A stretch of 38,040 bases of DNA, from NCBI GenBank assembly GCA_018830325.1, contig JAHJSQ010000058.1, positions 1-38,040 of the forward strand, given 5' to 3'. The stretch comes from Gammaproteobacteria bacterium. GTDB taxonomy: Bacteria > Pseudomonadota > Gammaproteobacteria > Methylococcales > Methylomonadaceae. Under the pieces are notes generated by a model. The model was not told the origin of the DNA and searched no databases. It worked only from the letters and a program-made list of their open reading frames with translations. Position numbers and translations under genes: made by a program. Positions 6,654 through 26,407 of the stretch are shown here, piece by piece (position 1 is the stretch's first letter; every line of letters begins with the position of its first letter).

Positions 6654-7409
6654 TTACTGGGTTCTGCCTCTCTTGCTTGGCTTATATTCCGTTTTTACAT
6701 ACACGTCTGAAAAATCAGAACCATCCCAAACATAACAGTAATGTTTACCTTGGCGTACGGGTGACAAAACCTTAGGTCTGAATATTGCGATACACTCTCC
6801 ACCCTGGCGCCTGACGCTATCGTAAACGATACCGTTTGAGCCATTTTTGCGAAGTTCACGCGCAAGTGTCTGAGCATAAGAATATTGGTCCGGACTGGAA
6901 GTATAAATATCCTGCATGTCGCTCTGTTTGCCACGGATATCGTTAAACTCTGTGTTTATGTCTGACGCATAGCTGCGCATGTTTATTTCTATTGGCGGCT
7001 GATTGGTTGCCTCAAGAAATCGTTTCCTATGAAACTTGGTTTCCTCAATAGCGGTATCAATATCCTTTGCCGCGTAATATACGCCATATGAGCCATCGGT
7101 AAAGCGGCTGCCTTCCGGATTTAAATGCGTGAATGCGGCCATGATTGGCGTTGTTCCCGGGCCTGAAATTCGTTCGTCCTGCGGAACAAGAGAAATCTCT
7201 CCAGCCTCTTCGCGTAAACGATCATTGGTTAGGCTTTCAATAAAGAAAACCACTTCCAAATCCTCAGGGTCTGCAACTCGATCAAATAGACCAACAGGCG
7301 GAAACCTGCTTGGAACGAGTCGCCAACAGGGTTTCCAGTTGATTAAAGAGGCCTCCAATAACTCACTAAGACCAACCACGTTGGCTATCCAAATATTGGC
7401 GGACGACAT
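6654..7409 (-). CDS. RES-domain toxin of a RES/Xre toxin-antitoxin pair
   Basis: A 251-aa protein with the RES-domain layout: CWRLVPSRFPP (Arg at 30/35), SYGVYYAAKD (Tyr111) and AIEETKFHRKRF (Glu122/123), then NGIVYDSVRRQGG (Ser198), fitting the R-E-S residues that name the family. Characterised RES toxins deplete NAD+ or transfer ADP-ribose; which applies here is not visible. The start at 7409 lies inside the antitoxin gene (44-nt overlap) and has no clear ribosome site of its own, which fits antitoxin-first translational coupling. A long C-terminal extension (after FRPKVLSPVRQG) is somewhat basic. Confidence 0.88.
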   Translation of the reverse strand: MSSANIWIANVVGLSELLEASLINWKPCWRLVPSRFPPVGLFDRVADPEDLEVVFFIESLTNDRLREEAGEISLVPQDERISGPGTTPIMAAFTHLNPEGSRFTDGSYGVYYAAKDIDTAIEETKFHRKRFLEATNQPPIEINMRSYASDINTEFNDIRGKQSDMQDIYTSSPDQYSYAQTLARELRKNGSNGIVYDSVRRQGGECIAIFRPKVLSPVRQGKHYCYVWDGSDFSDVYVKTEYKPSKRGRTQ

Positions 7410-7770
7410 ATAGATCAGCTACATGTCCTGATAACATTCTGTCCAAAGCAGACTGCCCGTTAAACGGACACGCTGAATTTGGTCGACTCAACCAAGTATC
7501 GGCGGCCTCAGGTTTAGGTAAAAGAATTTGCAGCGCCTTGTAGATCCCAAAAATATAGGAAAGCCGCTCAAGCTTATCTTGAGTCAAGTTAGCTTCCTCG
7601 GGCTTCTTTTTCCATTTAAAGAAAGTACTTTTTGAGTCTAATCCCAATAGCTTCATGGCCTGCTCCGTATTAAGCCGCCATGCGTCGGTTATATTGAAGA
7701 ATGTGTTTAAAGCGCCTTTTGCGATAGAAGATTTATCAAGTGATAAATTATGTTTAGCACTCTTGCTCAT
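7366..7770 (-). CDS. Xre/MbcA/ParS-type antitoxin
   Basis: A 134-aa antitoxin. The N-terminal half carries a Xre-like helix-turn-helix (NTEQAMKLLGLDSKSTFFKWK, about residues 32-52) and the C-terminal half the MbcA/ParS/Xre toxin-binding domain (LSYIFGIYKALQILLP, WLSRPN...FNGQSALDRMLSG). The frame extends to 7806, but AACAGGAAGAAAC lies just before the ATG at 7770, so MSKSAKHN is the likely start. The RES toxin gene overlaps its 3' end. A consensus-like promoter and an inverted repeat over the -10 box lie directly upstream and suggest autorepression. Confidence 0.88.
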   Translation of the reverse strand: MSKSAKHNLSLDKSSIAKGALNTFFNITDAWRLNTEQAMKLLGLDSKSTFFKWKKKPEEANLTQDKLERLSYIFGIYKALQILLPKPEAADTWLSRPNSACPFNGQSALDRMLSGHVADLYVVRQYLDSQRGWS

Positions 7771-7786
7771 GTTTCTTCCTGTTAAT

Positions 7787-7835
7787 CTATTAATAGACAT
7801 AATCATAAAATACGTCTATATATGCGCTTTGTCAA
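7787..7835 (-). promoter_or_regulatory. RES/Xre promoter and candidate operator
   Basis: On the reverse strand TTGACA (7830-7835), a 17-base spacer and TATTTT (7807-7812) form a good sigma70-type promoter for the antitoxin gene. An inverted repeat TAGACATA...TACGTCTA (7794-7818, one mismatch between arms) covers the -10 box, and a second perfect palindrome CTATTAATAG lies at 7787-7796. The position fits binding by the Xre antitoxin; binding itself is inferred. Confidence 0.6.
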
Positions 7836-9277: not shown

Positions 9278-10066
9278 CTATGCTGCCAAGGTATGACTGG
9301 AACCTTCCTGACGCGATTTAAGTGCTGTTTTCCAGAAGAAAATGAGCCCCAATGTCAACATTAAGATAGTCGACGGTTCCGGTACGCTTTGCGTGTTGCC
9401 CGTTGACGGCGGCGTTGTACCCTTTAAATTGACGACTTTAAAATAATCGTTACCCATACCGAGATAACCGCCCGGACTATTGCTCGAAGGGGCGCTACCT
9501 AACGCACTGTTGTAGGCACTGATCAGCCAATAGCTGGAAGAAACGGCCGCCTCGTTGATTGCTTTGGCGGTATTCGTGACTAAGTCGGCGTAATGACCTA
9601 TCAGCGTCCATCCGGAAGACAATAAACCCCCTGCAGAATTACCAAGCAAACTGGATGGAGCTCCGGCTCCGGTATAGGCCAATACCGAGATATCGGCATC
9701 GTAGTATTTCCAGCCGATAGAAATGGATTGTAGCGTTACGTTTTCGCTGAACGAAAACAGTGCGATGTCGACGCCATTATTATTATCGACCGAATGATTA
9801 GGCGATCCGCTGTCTTTTGTACTGATTACGCCTAAACCGCTACCGTTCCAGTAAGCCGTTGTTGCGTCTCGGAAAGTGGTATTTGAATTCCCTGTCGATG
9901 AAAAAGCCGTAACGCCCGCCGAGACACCGTCCCCGTTGAACGTGCAACCGCCGCTGCCGCATTGGCTCTGCGACGACGTTATGGTAAAAGAAGCCGTAGC
10001 TTGTGCCGTTACCGGCAAGGCTGTCGCTACGGACAGAAAAAGTGCCGCAGAATAAATTTTCAACAT
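9278..10066 (-). CDS. PEP-CTERM surface/exported protein
   Basis: A 262-aa exported protein with a signal peptide (MLKIYSAALFLSVATALPVTAQA) and a C-terminal PEP-CTERM sorting signal: VPEPST at about 228-233, a hydrophobic helix (ILMLTLGLIFFW), then basic KTALKSR. Exosortase recognises such signals; no exosortase is in the window. The body is rich in Ser, Gly, Asn and Thr. The ribosome site AAGGGG before the ATG at 10066 selects this start over the longer frame to 10108. Ten residues (QEGSSHTLAA) follow the basic cluster, longer than the usual short tail. It lies downstream of the TPR gene of the same system on the same strand, about 110 nt away. Confidence 0.88.
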   Translation of the reverse strand: MLKIYSAALFLSVATALPVTAQATASFTITSSQSQCGSGGCTFNGDGVSAGVTAFSSTGNSNTTFRDATTAYWNGSGLGVISTKDSGSPNHSVDNNNGVDIALFSFSENVTLQSISIGWKYYDADISVLAYTGAGAPSSLLGNSAGGLLSSGWTLIGHYADLVTNTAKAINEAAVSSSYWLISAYNSALGSAPSSNSPGGYLGMGNDYFKVVNLKGTTPPSTGNTQSVPEPSTILMLTLGLIFFWKTALKSRQEGSSHTLAA

Positions 10067-10177
10067 ATATTTTTCCCCTTGATTGGCTGAATGATTGAAT
10101 TTGGACACTTTTTATCACGAACCGGATATCACTGCTATTGTACGATGGTACGAAATTTGTTTAATCCGCTTAATGTA

Positions 10178-12976
10178 TCATCGGCCGATCTTATCCCTTA
10201 ATGCTTTCGCGTCTTCGATGCCGTTGAATGTTTGCCCCGCGTTTATTGCAGTTTCAAACTCCGCTTTTGCCTCGTCGAGCCGGCCCAGACGATAAAGCGC
10301 TACGCCGATGTGATAGCGAATTTCCGGATCTTCGGATGCCCTGGAGTGGGCGTTGCGCAAATAATTCAAGCCCTTTTCGATTTGTCCTTCGTGGACCAAG
10401 ATCCATCCCAGTGTATCGTTGACGCTGGCAAGCTCGGGCGCCAATTCGCGCGCGCGCTCGGCAACGCGTAAAGCATTTCTGTCGTTTTGCTGAAAATAAA
10501 TGTAAGCCAGATTGTTCATTAAGGACGCGTCGTTCGGGTAAATCGTCGACAATCGTTCAAAATGCTGTTGTGCTTCGTGCCATTTGTTTCTATGTAAAAA
10601 CTCTTCGGCCAAGGCGGCAATCGCCGCATGGTCGTCCGGCCGGTCGCCTGTCCAAGATTTCAACAATTCGAATGCGTCGTTATTTTGTCCTGCCTGTTTG
10701 TAAGCAAAGTACAGCTTCATCAAATGATCGATATTCTTTTCTTTGCCGAAAGCCGTTCGATAGTGCTGCAAAGCACCGGTATAATTTTGTTCGCGCCTTT
10801 GGATATCGCCCATTAACCGGTATCCGTGGGCTTTTTCGGGATATTTTTCAACCAATTCCTGTGCCAAATTTAGAGCCAAAAGCGGATTACCGTAATTCAA
10901 TTGCAATTCGGCTAGTCTAATTCGTGAGGGTACATGGGCTTCATCACTCAAAACGGCATTTTTAAGGGATTCGATGGCGTTTAGATAATCTTCGGCGGCA
11001 ATCTGGAGGTTTGCGATGTCATAGAGCCGTTCCGCATGAAATCCGGCGTTCCTGGCCATCCGTTCGAAAATCACGGCCGCCTGTTTATTATTGCCCGACG
11101 ACAGGTATGCTTGTCCAAGCGCACCGAGTATGCCTGCGTCCTCAGGTGCTAAAGCTAAAGCTCCCCTGGCAACTTGTACCGCCTCGGAATACTTCTGCTG
11201 TTTTAATTTTAAATCGATTTGCGCTAAAAAAACCGGCACCGATTTGGCGTTGATTTTTTTGGCTTCCGTCAACACACGTTCCGCTTCATCATAATTCGAG
11301 GTATTACCGAGTACTCTGGCCAATTCAATCATGACGGCTTGATTTTGCGGGTATTTGCTGTGCAATTCAGACAATCGGCGTTCAGCTTTGTCGAATTTTT
11401 TTTCAGCCGAATCCAATTTGCCTAGGTTGAATTGTGCGGGAAGGAATTGGGAGTTAATCTCCGCCGCCTTTTCAAAACTGTTCCGGGCTTCGGTCAATTG
11501 TCCCGCAGCCGCCTGAACGATGCCAAGCATGTTCAATATCGTGAGATTTTCAGGTTCTTTGAGATGCAACTGTCGTGCGAGAGCCATTCCTTTGCCGGTT
11601 TCGCCCCTTTTGACGTAGAGAATTAGCAGAGGCAAACCGGCTGTACCGGACACGGGGTTAGCCGCGAAATCGCGTTCCAGTTCTTCAATACCCTGGTTTT
11701 CTTGACCCAAAGCAAGCCATGCCAGCCCCAAATCAGTCCGTCCGCCCTCAACGTGCGAGGTGTTTTCGGACGCTAGGTTGAGCATCTCTGTTGCTTTGTC
11801 GTAACGGCCCAATTTCATATAGGCTTCGGCAAGGATCAACGATAGCCGGAAATCTTTGTGCGCGTGCGGTATCACCGGATTCAGCAGTTCGATGACTTTG
11901 TCCGGAGCGTTTTTCGACAGGAGCATCGTTCCGAGCAATTTGTAGACGCCGGGATGATCCGGAAAACGATCGATATAGTTTTTTGCGAAAACGGACGCTT
12001 GTTCGAACCGGTTTAGGCTGTAATTGACCAAGGCTGAAAGTAGTAAGCTTTGCGAGTGTTGTAGTAAAAATTCCTGTTTGATCTGACTCAAAATGTCGTC
12101 GGCTTCCTCCAGAGACTTAGCTGCTTCATCTACTTTACCGTTACGCGCCAATACAACGGAAAGTAAATAGGCCGCTTTGGGTTCGAAAGGATACGTTTTC
12201 CTAACGAATAGAAGATCGGACTCGGCTTGTCCGTCTTTTTTCTGGTCCATGAAAATTCCGATACGGGCCAGACGGGCGTCGAGATGTTCGGGATCAATGC
12301 TCAACGCTTTGTCGTAATCGGCGACCGCAGCATTCAATTCGCCTTTGGCATGTTTGATGGATGCTTTGATATACCAAGTACCGGCATTACCGGGTTCCAT
12401 CAAGGTAGCCTGATCGGCAAACAATGATGCTTCTTGAAAATCGTTTTTGCGGAGCAGGGCATTGGCTCTACCTATTGATGGGGCAACCGATGCAGGGTTT
12501 TTTCGAGCTGCCGTATTATATTCTTCAATTGCATTGTCGATCAGGCCGAGTTGCAAATAGGCGTCGCCGCGGAATACGTAAAGTTCGGATTGAACCGATT
12601 GACTGTAATGCTCGGGATCGATTTCATTGATTAGTTGACTGTATTTGATTTGGTAAAGATACAATTGCGCCAGATGCCGGACAAGCAGCGATTTGTCGGC
12701 CCCAAGCTTCATTGCTCGAGATAAAGCGACTTCGGCGCCGGCAAGATCTTTTTCCCGCAAATAAGCTTCGCCCAATAAAATATGTGCCGATACGTAATCA
12801 GGATGATGCTGAAGAGCATTTTTTAAATGAATGATGGCTGTCTTGACTTCACCATTACGATACGCAACAACCGCCTTTTCATAATCTTGACCGGCTTGAT
12901 CAGAAATCGCCAAGGCTCCGGCCGAGTATAACAATACCGGCAAGACGATCAGACTCGATGCGAATTTTTTCATCAT
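10178..12976 (-). CDS. prsT: PrsT-like TPR protein of the PEP-CTERM/exosortase system
   Basis: About 932 aa made almost entirely of tetratricopeptide repeats (many A...Y/L...G/A...A...P-spaced units, e.g. LGQAYLSSGNNKQAAVIFER), after a signal peptide (MKKFASSLIVLPVLLYSAGALA). Length, composition and repeat layout match the PEP-CTERM-system TPR protein PrsT (TIGR02917). Many PrsT proteins are lipoproteins; here no lipobox Cys is visible and cleavage after ALA by signal peptidase I looks likely. The frame is open to 13117; MNTLSN at 13027 is another candidate start, but MMKKFASS at 12976 gives a normal signal peptide. The PEP-CTERM gene directly downstream supports the assignment. Confidence 0.82.
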   Translation of the reverse strand: MMKKFASSLIVLPVLLYSAGALAISDQAGQDYEKAVVAYRNGEVKTAIIHLKNALQHHPDYVSAHILLGEAYLREKDLAGAEVALSRAMKLGADKSLLVRHLAQLYLYQIKYSQLINEIDPEHYSQSVQSELYVFRGDAYLQLGLIDNAIEEYNTAARKNPASVAPSIGRANALLRKNDFQEASLFADQATLMEPGNAGTWYIKASIKHAKGELNAAVADYDKALSIDPEHLDARLARIGIFMDQKKDGQAESDLLFVRKTYPFEPKAAYLLSVVLARNGKVDEAAKSLEEADDILSQIKQEFLLQHSQSLLLSALVNYSLNRFEQASVFAKNYIDRFPDHPGVYKLLGTMLLSKNAPDKVIELLNPVIPHAHKDFRLSLILAEAYMKLGRYDKATEMLNLASENTSHVEGGRTDLGLAWLALGQENQGIEELERDFAANPVSGTAGLPLLILYVKRGETGKGMALARQLHLKEPENLTILNMLGIVQAAAGQLTEARNSFEKAAEINSQFLPAQFNLGKLDSAEKKFDKAERRLSELHSKYPQNQAVMIELARVLGNTSNYDEAERVLTEAKKINAKSVPVFLAQIDLKLKQQKYSEAVQVARGALALAPEDAGILGALGQAYLSSGNNKQAAVIFERMARNAGFHAERLYDIANLQIAAEDYLNAIESLKNAVLSDEAHVPSRIRLAELQLNYGNPLLALNLAQELVEKYPEKAHGYRLMGDIQRREQNYTGALQHYRTAFGKEKNIDHLMKLYFAYKQAGQNNDAFELLKSWTGDRPDDHAAIAALAEEFLHRNKWHEAQQHFERLSTIYPNDASLMNNLAYIYFQQNDRNALRVAERARELAPELASVNDTLGWILVHEGQIEKGLNYLRNAHSRASEDPEIRYHIGVALYRLGRLDEAKAEFETAINAGQTFNGIEDAKALRDKIGR

Positions 12977-13117
12977 AATTGCTGTTAGACGGCAGGTTCT
13001 GATAAATAAATTGCTTAATGTATTCATTGTTTTGTATTCCGACGATAGAAAAAAGAAATCGTTTAACTCGCTAAGCTTATAGGAACATAGCGAATCCATG
13101 CCGCTTGGCAGTGCCAT

Positions 13118-16207: not shown

Positions 16208-17389
16208 TTAATCCCAATCACATAGTTTACCCATCCCATTTCGCGGCAATTTTGAACCTACCGTGAAATGTTTGGGTATCTGTGTACTAGGCAGTCGAGT
16301 CGATAACCATGAAGACAGTTCATCGATCAACATAGACGAGTTTAGTTGGCTGTCTTTATTAGGTACGATGTATGCTTTCAGCCGGTTTCCGTCGAACCTA
16401 ACCACCGATTCATGAATGGCAGCATGCTGTTTGATCTCTGAAGCAATCGCTTCGAGATTAACATTGGTTCCGGCGATTTGGATTTTTCCGTCTTTACGTC
16501 CTCGAATAATAAAGTGTTTTTTATCTACCCAGTGTAGTTTGTCTGGAAAGTTAGCGCTATGAAGATGGTTGCGAATCGAATCGTTAACGATTTGCCAATA
16601 AGGGAACAAAGAAAACGGTTCATCAGGTTTTTTTCGATAGCCAATGCCTCCGGTTTCGGTTGCTCCGTAAATTTCAATGGTATCTGCGTTTTGCGCTAAT
16701 AAAGCAGCGAGTATTTTTGGTGCGCAAGGTGCGCCGGCCATAACAACCGTAACCGGACGCGGCAATCTAAGCCCCGAATTTATCCAATGTTGCCAAAAGT
16801 CAGGTATTGAGACGATGATGTCTCCATCCTGTAAGCTTTTTTCTAATGAAATCGGTAAGCGTTGGCGTCCATCTATCACTTCCGGCCGATTGACCAATCT
16901 GCTCGGCAATGCCATTGTAAAAATAAAGCCGTAGATATGTTGAGCCGGAATCAAAGCCCAAATCCGACGAACAGCGCTATTGCCGGGTAACAAATGCTGA
17001 GCGATAAAATCGACTTCTTGTTGAATATGAGCGAGGGGTATTGTCGTAACGACAGGAGAAGATGTCGATCCTGAGCTGGAAAAGCTGATGAATTGATGAA
17101 AATTTTCAAGACTCGCCGTCGCGATCTCCTTCCAGCCGTTGACCGAAGGTTTTGCAAGTAAAAAATCTTCCAGCCCGGAGTCCGCAATATGCAACATTCG
17201 TGCGAATGCTGTTGCGCAATCCACCAATTCCAATGAGTCAATGTTGAGCGGCGAAGCCGACCAGTTTACTGAAAGCATGACTGCTTGCGGAGACGGCATG
17301 TGAGCGCCAGGGCGTAATCGACTTATATGCCCAAGTACGAAATCGACAATCAATCGGCGCATATTAGCGCCGTTTTGCCACCACATCAT
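16208..17389 (-). CDS. AMP-forming acyl-CoA ligase, candidate p-coumaroyl-CoA ligase for PYP
   Basis: A 393-aa ANL-superfamily adenylating enzyme, shorter than the usual 500-550 aa. Motifs: P-loop SSSGSTSSP (104-112), YGATETGG (241-248), [14 protein letters not shown] (294-307) and PRNGMGK with catalytic Lys388. The N-terminal about 80 residues contain [10 protein letters not shown], resembling a carrier-protein D-S-L motif. Its start overlaps the stop of the PYP-chemoreceptor gene by 4 bp (ATGA, 17386-17389), so the two are translationally coupled. PYP needs p-coumarate activated as the CoA thioester before attachment to its cysteine, and 4-coumarate-CoA ligase genes are known beside pyp. 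The role here is inferred from this linkage; other aryl or acyl acids remain possible. No tyrosine ammonia-lyase gene is in the window. Confidence 0.78.
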
Positions 17390-18993
17390 ACACGTTTAAC
17401 AAAAATCCAATAGGTATCGCCACTCAGTGATTTTTTCATATGTACTTTAACTTTGGTCGGGCGCATGTTGTAATCAAAAGTGTATTCGAATTTTTTGTTG
17501 AGAAAGCCCATACGAGCCCCTTTGTCGAACTCGCCTTTGAATAGGGGAGTGTCTGTACAGGGGGCGACTTCGGTGAAAAAGTTTCGACCGAGGACTTCTT
17601 TCGGATTGCGTCCGGTTATATCGCCTTCCGCGGAGTTATATCGCAAAATGCGGCCGTTTTTATCCAATTCGATTGCACCGAATGCAATGCTATCCAGCTC
17701 TTCGCTGCTCATTTTACGCATAGCGCTTTCGATATCGTCGCGTCCGAATTCCACGATGCTGGATGATAGTGTGTTGGTTTTAAAGTTGGAAACCAATTTT
17801 TCCAGTTTTTGCGCGCGCTGTGACAGGGCTTGACTCACTTCTTGATTTTGATTCATCGCCTGAGCGTTTGCCTCGGCGAGTTCATTAATACGAAGCATGC
17901 TTTGGCTAATATCGGTTGCTACGCTATTTTGATCGCGAGCGGCTAAAGCGATTTGTTTTCCCATGTCGTAAACCGAATCCACTCGATGATCGATTGTATG
18001 CAGAGATTCTCCTGCCTTATTGGCTTGTTCTACACAGTTATGCGCTTGTGTCGTACCTTGTTCAATCGCACCGGTTACTGCTTGTGCTGATTCTTGCAGG
18101 TCGGCGATGATGGCATGTATTTGTTGAGTGGCTTCTTGCGTATCAAAAGCGAGTTTTCGAACTTCATCGGCAACAACGGCAAAACCGCGACCGTGCTCGC
18201 CGGCTCGAGCGGCCTCGATAGCCGCGTTCAATGCTAAAAGATTCGTTTGATCGGCAATTTTAGCGATAGTGTCGATTACGTCTCCGATGTTGTGACTGCC
18301 CTGGTCGAGTCGACTGACCGCCGATTGCATGGATTCCATTTGATTTGCCAACATACTGATTGAGGACATCGTTTCATTGACTACTTGTAATCCCATTTTG
18401 GTTTGTTCTTTAGCGTCGGAGGCGACTTTTTGAGTCGCATCGGCATGCTCGGCCGTTTCATTTGATGAAACGGTCATCTGAGCACTCGCCTTGACGACTT
18501 GATCGGTCTCTTGTTGTTGTGAATGTGCAAGATCGATACTTTGGTGAGTATTCCCGGCAAATTGCTCGACAGCAACGTTAAGGTCGTCCGAGGTTCTTGC
18601 GACTTCTTCTATGATTTGATGCAATTGGCTCGAATAACCGTTGAAAGCGGAAAATAAACTTCCCAGTTCATCGTCATTTGAATATTCCAAACGAATATTC
18701 AAATCCTTTTGCATGTTTTCCAGCCGCGAAATGCCTTCGTTAATCGGAACGGTGAGGTTTTTCTCTAGTAGTATATTGAGCATAATAACGACAAGCGCTG
18801 TAAATGCTACCAGTATGCCGAGAAAAATATAAGCGATTTGCAAAACCTGAGATCGTATTTCTACTGATAATGTATTAAAAACGTCATGGTTTTGCAGGGA
18901 AAAAGTAAAGATTAAGCTCGCTATAAAGAAAAAAACACCGTATGAAAGGAAATGGACAGTTAATCGAGACTTCAATGTGACAGATTTTGGCAT
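17386..18993 (-). CDS. Chemoreceptor (MCP) with C-terminal photoactive yellow protein domain
   Basis: A 535-aa fusion. Two transmembrane helices (about 13-33 and 50-75) enclose a periplasmic loop of only about 16 residues, so there is no external ligand domain. A HAMP-like region follows (about 76-130), then a long coiled coil with the MCP signalling tip ([19 protein letters not shown], 248-266), which couples to CheA/CheW. Residues 411-535 are a complete PYP domain: [35 protein letters not shown] and WIFVKRV align without gaps to 125-residue PYP. Conserved are Tyr42 (here 452), Glu46 (456), Thr50 (460), Arg52 (462), chromophore Cys69 (479) and Met100 (510). It should sense blue light through a p-coumaroyl thioester and steer motility. 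It lies between a BLUF gene (70 nt upstream) and the overlapping ligase gene. Confidence 0.93.
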
Positions 18994-19063: not shown

Positions 19064-19477
19064 CTATGGAAGCGTCTCGCTTAATTCACACAACATTGCA
19101 TGAGCAGTGGCGCCACTCATCTTGAAGGGGTCAAATTCCAAATTATTTGAAAAACGCAACAATAATGCTTGATTTTCTTTGGTCAACCCTAGATATCCCA
19201 TATGCCAATTATCAAAATCGCGGGCTATTATCTCGTGATATTCCAACAAGGTTGTATCGAAATGGCGTTTATCTTCAAGAATATGACGGTACAATTCATT
19301 GACAGCTGTACGCGAGCCTTCCAATGATTGCAAAAAATTATAACCATTGAAACACAACATGCCAGTTATGCCTTTTTGGGCATTGGTTTTGCGGGCAACT
19401 CCTAAAATTTGCTCGACATCGGTCGGTCCGAAGCCTTCTCTTGCTCTGCTGGCGTATATCAGCCTGACTAAATACAT
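19064..19477 (-). CDS. Stand-alone BLUF blue-light sensor (FAD)
   Basis: A 137-aa BLUF protein. Residues 1-95 contain the flavin-binding set at the canonical spacing: Tyr8 (VRLIYASR), Asn32 (KTNAQKGITGML), Gln50 (NFLQSLEG), Trp91 and Met93 (DNWHMGY). In AppA the equivalents are Y21, N45, Q63, W104 and M106, with identical intervals. The remaining about 40 residues are a short helical cap typical of single-domain BLUF proteins; there is no output domain. The frame extends to 19684, but GAGGTG precedes the ATG at 19477 and the BLUF fold begins there. It is the first gene of the probable operon BLUF, MCP-PYP, ligase, with a 70-nt gap to the receptor. Confidence 0.92.
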   Translation of the reverse strand: MYLVRLIYASRAREGFGPTDVEQILGVARKTNAQKGITGMLCFNGYNFLQSLEGSRTAVNELYRHILEDKRHFDTTLLEYHEIIARDFDNWHMGYLGLTKENQALLLRFSNNLEFDPFKMSGATAHAMLCELSETLP

Positions 19478-19856
19478 TGCACACCTCGAATTCATTGCTG
19501 GAGAAATCAACTGAATCGGTTCATATAATAATTGATTACACAGTAAAAGTAATCTGATCAACAAGAAGCTTCGGCTTGTCGAAGCGAATATCCTGACGGA
19601 GTCAAATAGAAGCAGCCGCATCTCTAAGATATATATCAGCGAGAAGCTATATATCAATGGCATCGAGTTGGAAACTTCTATCAAAAGGGATATCGCTTGG
19701 CTGTTTGCCGGACTGTCGCCAAGCTTTACTGAAAAACCATCGAGACTGAAATGGAAGAGGGTTATTTGGATGGCGTGGTGTGGGGCAATCAGGGTTATGT
19801 CGACCTGCGCTTGAAGGATTTTGGAGCCATCCGCGATTTTACCGAGTGTGAGTATT

Positions 19857-25522: not shown

Positions 25523-26407
25523 ATGTTAATCCGTATGCTTTATATCAGTTCGGCGACTAGTCCGATGAGTGATGAAGATATGTTGAATATGCTTGAGAAG
25601 TGCCGAGTTAATAACGCGGCTCGGAATATTACCGGCATGTTGTTGTATTGCCAGGATACCTTCGTTCAAGTTTTGGAAGGCGAAGATAAGGACGTGGATG
25701 CTCTTTATAACTGTATTAAAAAAGATCCGCGTCATAGTGGGATCAACATCCTTGAGCGTAAGGTTGTCGATAAAAGACAGTTTCCCGACTGGAGCATGGG
25801 ATTTAAAAAAATTACCGATGCCGATTTATCGAACGTGGAAGGACTTAATTCATTTTTTGAGCATGATGCCGGGTCGGATTATTTCATACACGAGCAAAAC
25901 ATCGTGTCGTTGCTGATGCAGCATTTTAGAAAAAAATATCAAGCCCAAATGGCGCACGCCGAATTACCCACGGAAGATGTGAATCCTCTGATTGGAAGTT
26001 TGCATAAAACAATTATCAAAGCCGTCAACGTTTTAGCCGTTTTGATGGTAGCAGTGATCATATTCGGGGTTTGGGATGTCGTTGTTGTTATTTTCGATAA
26101 GCTATTTACTCCGCCTTATCTAATGCTGACAGTCAGCGATATTTTGGCGACTTTCGGATCGTTTATGATGGTTTTGATTGCCATCGAAATTTTTATCAAT
26201 ATTACGCTGTATTTACGTACTGATGTCATTCCGATCCGGTTAGTGCTTGCAACCGCAGTCATGGCGGTTGCTCGGAAAATTATTATTTTCGATTATAAAG
26301 CGATCGATCCGCAGTATGTCTATGCATCAGGCGTTGTTTTGCTGGCTTTAGGTGTAACTTATTGGATCGTTGGGAAGTATCACGCAGAAGAAGATAAAAC
26401 GATATAG
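25523..26407 (+). CDS. BLUF photoreceptor fused to a PsiE-type membrane domain
   Basis: A 294-aa fusion. Residues 1-95 are a BLUF domain with Tyr7 (RMLYISS), Asn31 (VNNAARNITGML), Gln49 (FVQVLEG), Trp90 and Met92 (PDWSMGF) at exactly the canonical spacing. A linker (about 96-160) leads to a four-helix membrane domain (about 165-192, 203-230, 237-256, 264-284) with the look of PsiE (phosphate-starvation-inducible E family, PF06146), including LTVSDILATFGSFMMVLIAIE and the R-K-I-I-I/F motif before the last helix. The N-terminal BLUF would sit in the cytoplasm. PsiE function is unknown, so the light-controlled output is unknown. The ribosome site is AAGGGGTAAAC. Confidence 0.88.
   Translation: MLIRMLYISSATSPMSDEDMLNMLEKCRVNNAARNITGMLLYCQDTFVQVLEGEDKDVDALYNCIKKDPRHSGINILERKVVDKRQFPDWSMGFKKITDADLSNVEGLNSFFEHDAGSDYFIHEQNIVSLLMQHFRKKYQAQMAHAELPTEDVNPLIGSLHKTIIKAVNVLAVLMVAVIIFGVWDVVVVIFDKLFTPPYLMLTVSDILATFGSFMMVLIAIEIFINITLYLRTDVIPIRLVLATAVMAVARKIIIFDYKAIDPQYVYASGVVLLALGVTYWIVGKYHAEEDKTI

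What the first reader, a model, noticed from the sequence alone, without database searches (positions are those of the whole stretch)
17386..18993. Chemoreceptor with a complete, chromophore-competent PYP domain at its C-terminus
Residues 411-535 align gaplessly, from memory, with the classical 125-residue photoactive yellow protein and retain Cys69, Tyr42, Glu46, Thr50, Arg52 and Met100 equivalents. The fusion puts the light sensor after the MCP signalling hairpin, in the cytoplasm, and the receptor has almost no periplasmic domain. Light would therefore be the main input and chemotaxis the output. PYP fusions to phytochrome and diguanylate cyclase are known; I cannot verify how often a chemoreceptor fusion has been described.
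Basis: partly seen in the sequence, partly recalled or inferred. Interest (0 to 1): 0.93.

Follow-up and report, generated by a model that had tools for sequence, protein, structure and literature searches.

The report
Methanotroph chemoreceptor with blue-light sensor
A methane-eating bacterium carries a swimming-control receptor fused to a complete blue-light sensor (photoactive yellow protein) next to a gene for a likely chromophore-activating enzyme; such fusions are already in print, first from the same genus, so this is a good further example rather than a new kind.

Summary
ORF 17386-18993 (-) is a 535-residue chemoreceptor: two predicted membrane helices with a loop of about 18 residues, HAMP, MCP signalling hairpin, and a C-terminal photoactive yellow protein (PYP) that passes NCBI's curated PYP cut-off and is 66% identical, without gaps, to a solved PYP. 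All six named pocket residues are present. The next gene overlaps it by 4 bp and is 4-coumarate:CoA-ligase-like. The genome also has one aromatic amino-acid lyase, CheW/CheA-type genes and flagellins. Light-to-chemotaxis signalling is the best reading, inferred and untested.

The kind is not new. A 2025 paper (PMC12826048) lists 12 MCP-PYP fusions, all C-terminal, credits the first to Methylomicrobium (now Methylotuvimicrobium) alcaliphilum, the window's genus, and shows one such PYP domain absorbing at 447 nm with a 0.5 s photocycle; no phototaxis was detected.

What my calls add: ten fusions in sampled genomes, each followed by a ligase-like gene; two of the ten in the order of a Helicobacteraceae record; two MCP backbones (one origin of the MCP part rejected, p 0.0002; not rejected for the PYP part) with PYP at the same end; and a BLUF receptor gene just upstream in the window and two close relatives.

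The parts
17386..18993 (-). MCP-PYP fusion gene, 535 aa plus stop
18895..18954 (-). predicted membrane helix 1 (residues about 14-33)
   Evidence: hydropathy; inside a helix of the model
18772..18840 (-). predicted membrane helix 2 (residues about 52-74); loop of about 18 residues between the two
   Evidence: hydropathy; inside a helix of the model
18616..18759 (-). HAMP domain, residues 79-126
   Evidence: PF00672 25.6 bits, cut-off 25
17878..18426 (-). MCP signalling domain, residues 190-372
   Evidence: PF00015 145.2 bits
17389..17763 (-). PYP domain, residues 411-535; Cys479 (expected chromophore site) codon at 17557-17559
   Evidence: TIGR02373 181.8 bits; 66% identity to a solved PYP; pocket residues
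16208..17389 (-). 4-coumarate:CoA-ligase-like gene, 393 aa, start overlapping the MCP-PYP stop by 4 bp
   Evidence: TIGR02372 263.9 bits, nearly full length but under the curated cut-off of 334.7; overlap
19064..19477 (-). short BLUF protein gene (alternative in-frame start at 19495), ending 70 bp before the MCP-PYP start; possibly same transcript
   Evidence: PF04940 101.2 bits; next to MCP-PYP in L033 and L034 too; translation

Best explanation
It is a blue-light chemoreceptor. Shown from sequence: a membrane-anchored MCP with HAMP and signalling hairpin, almost no outside domain, and a complete PYP at the C-terminus. Inferred: p-coumarate, made from tyrosine or taken up, is activated by the neighbouring ligase as a CoA thioester and attached to Cys479. 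Blue light isomerises it; the long-lived signalling state loosens the PYP N-cap, which is joined through a short, probably flexible linker to the end of the C-terminal hairpin helix, at the membrane-proximal base beside HAMP. This shifts the packing of the helix bundle and so CheA activity, and the cells change swimming. The sign of the response cannot be read from sequence; avoidance of harmful blue light is my guess.
For: PYP family model over its cut-off and full pocket. Ligase-like gene directly downstream in 10 of 10 fusion loci found. PF00221 aromatic lyase in 9 of 9 fusion-bearing genomes tested (G637 not among them), next to the fusion and divergent in two, G571 and, as a fragment at a contig end, G349. 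PF01584 (CheW/CheA) matches in 9 of 9, nine of them in the window's genome; Flagellin_N in 10 of 10. Model: helix 265-407, low confidence 404-412, then the PYP fold. A homologous fusion's PYP domain is photoactive: 447 nm, 0.5 s (PMC12826048, abstract and passages).
Against: No experiment on this protein. The paper's authors could not detect phototaxis in N. alkalilacustris. The window's aromatic lyase is not next to the fusion; it lies on another contig among glycosyltransferase, acyltransferase, AMP-ligase and FAD-oxidoreductase genes. Its best NCBIfam model is a histidine ammonia-lyase one, it passes no specific cut-off, tyrosine or other, and 49 of 195 PYP-less genomes of the order draw also have a PF00221 match, so its role in making this chromophore is open. 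The ligase is under its curated cut-off. The whole-protein model has pTM 0.34, so domain placement is unsure.
Confidence: 0.8

Rival explanations
1. The PYP domain is light-active but the receptor's output is not, or not only, flagellar steering: it feeds another CheA system of the genome (for example pilus motility, c-di-GMP or gene expression). This can hold alongside the best explanation, so the two confidences are not exclusive.
For: Nine PF01584 matches on four contigs suggest more than one CheA/CheW set; no phototaxis was seen in N. alkalilacustris.
Against: Flagellin_N matches are present in all 10 genomes examined; that chemoreceptors usually couple to flagellar CheA is recalled, not tested here.
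Confidence: 0.3
2. The domain has lost chromophore binding and works as an ordinary PAS or redox module.
For: PYP relatives without Cys69 exist and redox sensing was proposed for some (PMC9664959, passages read).
Against: All six pocket residues kept in 10 of 10 fusions, Cys included, and a ligase-like gene kept beside each.
Confidence: 0.05
3. The fusion is a frame or assembly error joining two separate genes.
For: 76 of 80 named PYP loci hold a stand-alone pyp ORF and only four an MCP fusion.
Against: Unbroken frame in four genomes of the window's genus, two of another genus of the family, Nitrincola and three others.
Confidence: 0.01

Closest known systems
MCP-PYP fusion of Methylomicrobium (Methylotuvimicrobium) alcaliphilum, G4T070 (Meyer 2012, known to me only through PMC12826048)
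   Same: Genus and domain set as described; a genus relative, G002, carries a 96% identical protein. That G002 is this species is a guess from its genome size.
   Different: Unknown: the named record itself was not compared.
MCP-PYP of Nitrincola alkalilacustris (L088; PMC12826048)
   Same: Same domain order, same MCP clade (100/100), same six pocket residues, ligase-like gene downstream; PYP domain of this species' fusion shown photoactive in print.
   Different: 57% identical to the window protein in alignment A2; HAMP match under the cut-off; its upstream neighbour is a nitronate monooxygenase-like gene on the other strand.
MCP-PYP type B: L038 (G349), L151 (G571, Helicobacteraceae CG2_30_36_10), L152 (G637)
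   Same: PYP at the C-terminus, full pocket, ligase-like gene downstream.
   Different: No HAMP match, MCP part of another lineage, shorter distance from hairpin tip to PYP: 112-118 against 148-151 residues.
Ppr (PYP-phytochrome-histidine kinase, Rhodospirillum centenum)
   Same: PYP as input of a multidomain sensor.
   Different: PYP at the N-terminus; histidine kinase output (PMC12826048, passages).

Membership tests
Photoactive yellow protein | PYP family model over curated cut-off | tested here: met
   TIGR02373 181.8 bits against 143.05
Photoactive yellow protein | Cys69, Tyr42, Glu46 (named in PMC9664959 as key to p-coumarate binding) | tested here: met
Photoactive yellow protein | Covalent p-coumarate, absorption near 447 nm and photocycle | not testable with these tools
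   among MCP fusions shown in print for the N. alkalilacustris homologue only, as far as I read
Methyl-accepting chemotaxis protein | MCP signalling domain with HAMP and membrane helices | tested here: met
   PF00015, PF00672; hydropathy
Methyl-accepting chemotaxis protein | Methylation, CheA coupling | not testable with these tools
   -
MCP-PYP fusion (PMC12826048) | PYP C-terminal to an MCP | tested here: met
pyp-ligase gene pair | Ligase-like gene directly next to pyp on the same strand | tested here: met
   4 bp overlap
4-coumarate:CoA ligase TIGR02372 | Score over curated cut-off | tested here: not met
   263.9 against 334.7 bits; best family by far, so ligase-like, not filed as a member
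Tyrosine ammonia-lyase | Over a tyrosine-specific cut-off | tested here: not met
   L150:10303-11832 is PF00221 but under every specific cut-off; the best model is a histidine ammonia-lyase one

The most novel reading that the evidence does not exclude
PYP was fused to the C-terminus of chemoreceptors at least twice, on unrelated MCP backbones (one with HAMP in methanotrophs and Nitrincola, one without a HAMP match in two genomes of a Helicobacteraceae record's order and one genome of the window's class), each time with its ligase behind it. The base of the C-terminal hairpin helix would then be a general port through which a light sensor can drive an MCP. In the window's lineage a BLUF receptor gene sits just upstream of the fusion gene, so two blue-light sensors of different chemistry may act together.
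Probability: 0.5. Interest if true: 0.45.

Novelty: new member of a known kind. Interest (0 to 1): 0.32.

Why it matters
The signalling chain after PYP is an open question (PMC12826048, abstract, calls it an important gap). A fusion joins sensor and receptor in one chain, and members of this genus include cultivated, genetically used methanotrophs (recalled), so a deletion and swimming test is feasible. The same end-to-end order on two MCP backbones speaks to a point which that paper leaves open: whether the C-terminal position was inherited once or is favoured by mechanism (passage read).

Tried and rejected
Viral contigs: 75 stretches matched a pattern, none encodes a relative. Plasmids: 2749 records match, none covers 80% of the query; the five rows listed match the MCP part only, and 2744 were not shown. 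PADLOC for the RES/Xre pair: nothing. Promoter and terminator scans gave numbers near the shuffled mean and decide nothing.

A shared origin of all ten fusions: the MCP part rejects it (p 0.000236), the PYP part does not (p 0.295), nor does the ligase (p 0.286, quick tree). So one fusion with a later exchange of the MCP part is not excluded. Type B as one clade is not rejected (p 0.235), though the free MCP tree puts G637 elsewhere, on a long branch. In the PYP tree Nitrincola does not join the methanotrophs, with weak support; one clade is not rejected (p 0.456), and the ligase tree does unite them. The background MCPs of the tree are mainly the best hits of two searches, not an even sample. 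Types A and B were named after I had seen the sequences.

A co-occurrence argument for the lyase (6 of 6 PYP genomes against 49 of 195 others in the order draw) was not pressed: the six are close relatives. The BLUF count over the 80 named loci is void because my query was read in a wrong frame; BLUF neighbours were compared properly only in the nine loci.

Rows dropped: 20 loci that repeat other loci, PYP stretches under 100 and MCP stretches under 150 residues (not counted), two more duplicate rows, 3 of 89 loci without a ligase ORF of 280-480 residues, and L121 as a repeat of L151. One search shows the best 80 of 147 relatives, so weaker MCP fusions may be missed. Genomes were drawn samples (201, 369, 149, 398), not all held.

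Full report
Check. The reported ORF is there and open on the minus strand, 535 residues. Pfam gives HAMP 79-126, MCPsignal 190-372 and a PAS fold at the end; NCBIfam gives photo_yellow at 413-535 with 181.8 bits, over its cut-off of 143.05. Against a solved PYP the match is 80/122 identical with no gap. Of 87 other PYP rows in the same alignment, some of them remote, 85 have the Cys, 85 Tyr42, 85 Glu46, 79 Thr50, 81 Arg52 and 82 Met100; all ten fusions have all six. Hydropathy suggests two membrane helices and a loop of about 18 residues.

Surroundings. The gene behind it starts at the fusion's stop codon (4 bp overlap) and best matches the 4-coumarate:CoA ligase model TIGR02372, 263.9 bits over nearly the whole model, but under the curated cut-off of 334.7. 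The gene before it is a short BLUF protein that ends 70 bp upstream of the fusion's start. Further out are a multicopper oxidase and glycolate oxidase genes glcD, glcE, glcF, which I take as unrelated. A second BLUF, joined to a PsiE domain, lies at 25523-26407.

Genome. It has one PYP over the cut-off and one weak match under it, one PF00221 aromatic lyase, nine PF01584 matches and three Flagellin_N matches. The lyase lies on another contig among glycosyltransferase, acyltransferase, AMP-ligase and FAD-oxidoreductase genes; I read that as an aryl-polyene-like pigment cluster, from memory of such clusters and not by a test. Its best NCBIfam model is a histidine ammonia-lyase one, and no specific cut-off is passed, so its substrate is open.

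Which organism. G005, in the window's genus by the tool, has a contig of the same length (4,984,547) as the Methylotuvimicrobium buryatense 5G record L042, so the window is from Methylotuvimicrobium or its GTDB equivalent. The fusion is 99, 96 and 74% identical in G003, G002 and G005; G001 (79% complete) and G004 showed only MCP matches.

Distribution. In the order, 6 of 201 genomes drawn have a PYP at E up to 1e-15, all six in open frames of 538-565 codons and confirmed as MCP fusions. In the class draw 7 of 369, of which three sit in long frames, the window, G005 and G349. In the order of G571 (a Helicobacteraceae record; Campylobacterales is my reading), 2 of 149, both fusions. In the phylum draw 5 of 398, the window and four under the cut-off. 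Among 80 named loci (best 80 of 147 relatives), four are MCP fusions: M. buryatense 5G, Methylomonas sp. SURF-1, N. alkalilacustris and Helicobacteraceae CG2_30_36_10; 80 of 80 have a ligase-like ORF downstream on the same strand of a PYP, within 250 bases in 79. In all I have ten distinct fusions: window, G002, G003, G005, G126, G135, N. alkalilacustris, G349, G571, G637. All have PYP at the C-terminus and a ligase-like gene directly behind; two of these ligase-like ORFs are short (302 residues in L038, 354 in L151).

Two backbones. Seven fusions share a HAMP-type MCP (clade at 100/100 in a tree of 61 rows; of the three scanned with Pfam, the HAMP match of Nitrincola is under the cut-off) and three have an MCP without a HAMP match that falls among receptors of G571's order. 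Holding all ten together is rejected on the MCP part (p 0.000236), and not rejected on the PYP part (p 0.295) or the ligase (p 0.286). Either two fusions or one fusion with an exchanged MCP part fits. The distance from the hairpin tip to PYP is 148-151 residues in the first type and 112-118 in the second.

How it may work. The model shows one long helix 265-407, a poorly predicted stretch 404-412 and then the PYP fold (pTM 0.34, so relative placement is not shown). The C-terminal helix of an MCP hairpin runs back from the tip, so PYP would hang at the membrane-proximal base. Loosening of the PYP N-cap in light (established for Halorhodospira PYP, recalled) would act on that end. This last step is inference.

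Literature. PMC12826048 (abstract, sections 4 and 8, and searched passages read) lists 12 MCP-PYP fusions, all with PYP C-terminal, credits the first to M. alcaliphilum (its reference 11, not read), reports the Nitrincola domain at 447 nm with 0.5 s recovery, and states that phototaxis was not detected. It found BLUF in two pyp operons, both in Caballeronia sp. SBC2 and downstream. Here BLUF is upstream, in the window and the loci of G002 and G003, and not found by the same comparison in the loci of G005, G126 and G135. The paper puts Campylobacterota at under 1% of PYP homologues, and in the parts that I read does not say whether the 12 fusions include any; the supplement was not open to me. 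Other searches that join PYP with chemoreceptor, lyase or BLUF terms, or the genus with PYP or phototaxis, listed no other description of such a fusion in the titles and abstract beginnings shown. PMC5812497 (passages) names only the phytochrome fusion Ppr; PMC9664959 (passages) describes separate PYP and chemoreceptor genes side by side in Leptospira. The library lacks most subscription journals.

Verdict. A sound observation and a sound interpretation of a system already described in the same genus. The extra value lies in the two MCP backbones, the members in G571's order and the BLUF neighbour.

Noticed in passing
window 19064-19477 (-): Short BLUF protein gene 70 bp upstream of the fusion, kept in two close relatives (L033, L034) and not found next to the fusion in L035-L037.
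   Followed up: partly
window 25523-26407 (+): BLUF domain joined to a PsiE (phosphate-starvation-inducible E) domain in one protein; kept at 98% identity in L033.
   Followed up: no
L150:5740-13767 (G000 contig C11): The genome's only PF00221 aromatic lyase lies near AMP-ligase, glycosyltransferase, acyltransferase and carotenoid-desaturase-like genes, resembling aryl-polyene pigment clusters (from memory).
   Followed up: partly
window 6654-7806 (-): RES-domain and Xre-like antitoxin pair, a probable toxin-antitoxin module; no PADLOC match.
   Followed up: partly
L045:574-945 and nearby: Skermanella aerolata locus with two PYP ORFs, one cut by the end of the stretch held, and an MCP-like ORF 87 bp downstream of one of them: an unfused pyp-mcp neighbour pair.
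   Followed up: no
L049:3494-5497 (-): Skermanella stibiiresistens 667-residue protein with a remote PYP-like domain that keeps its Cys, C-terminal to what looks by motif (from memory) like a histidine kinase, beside a normal pyp-ligase pair.
   Followed up: no
window 9278-13117 (-): XDP1 exosortase-dependent surface protein and PEP-CTERM-system TPR protein PrsT side by side.
   Followed up: no
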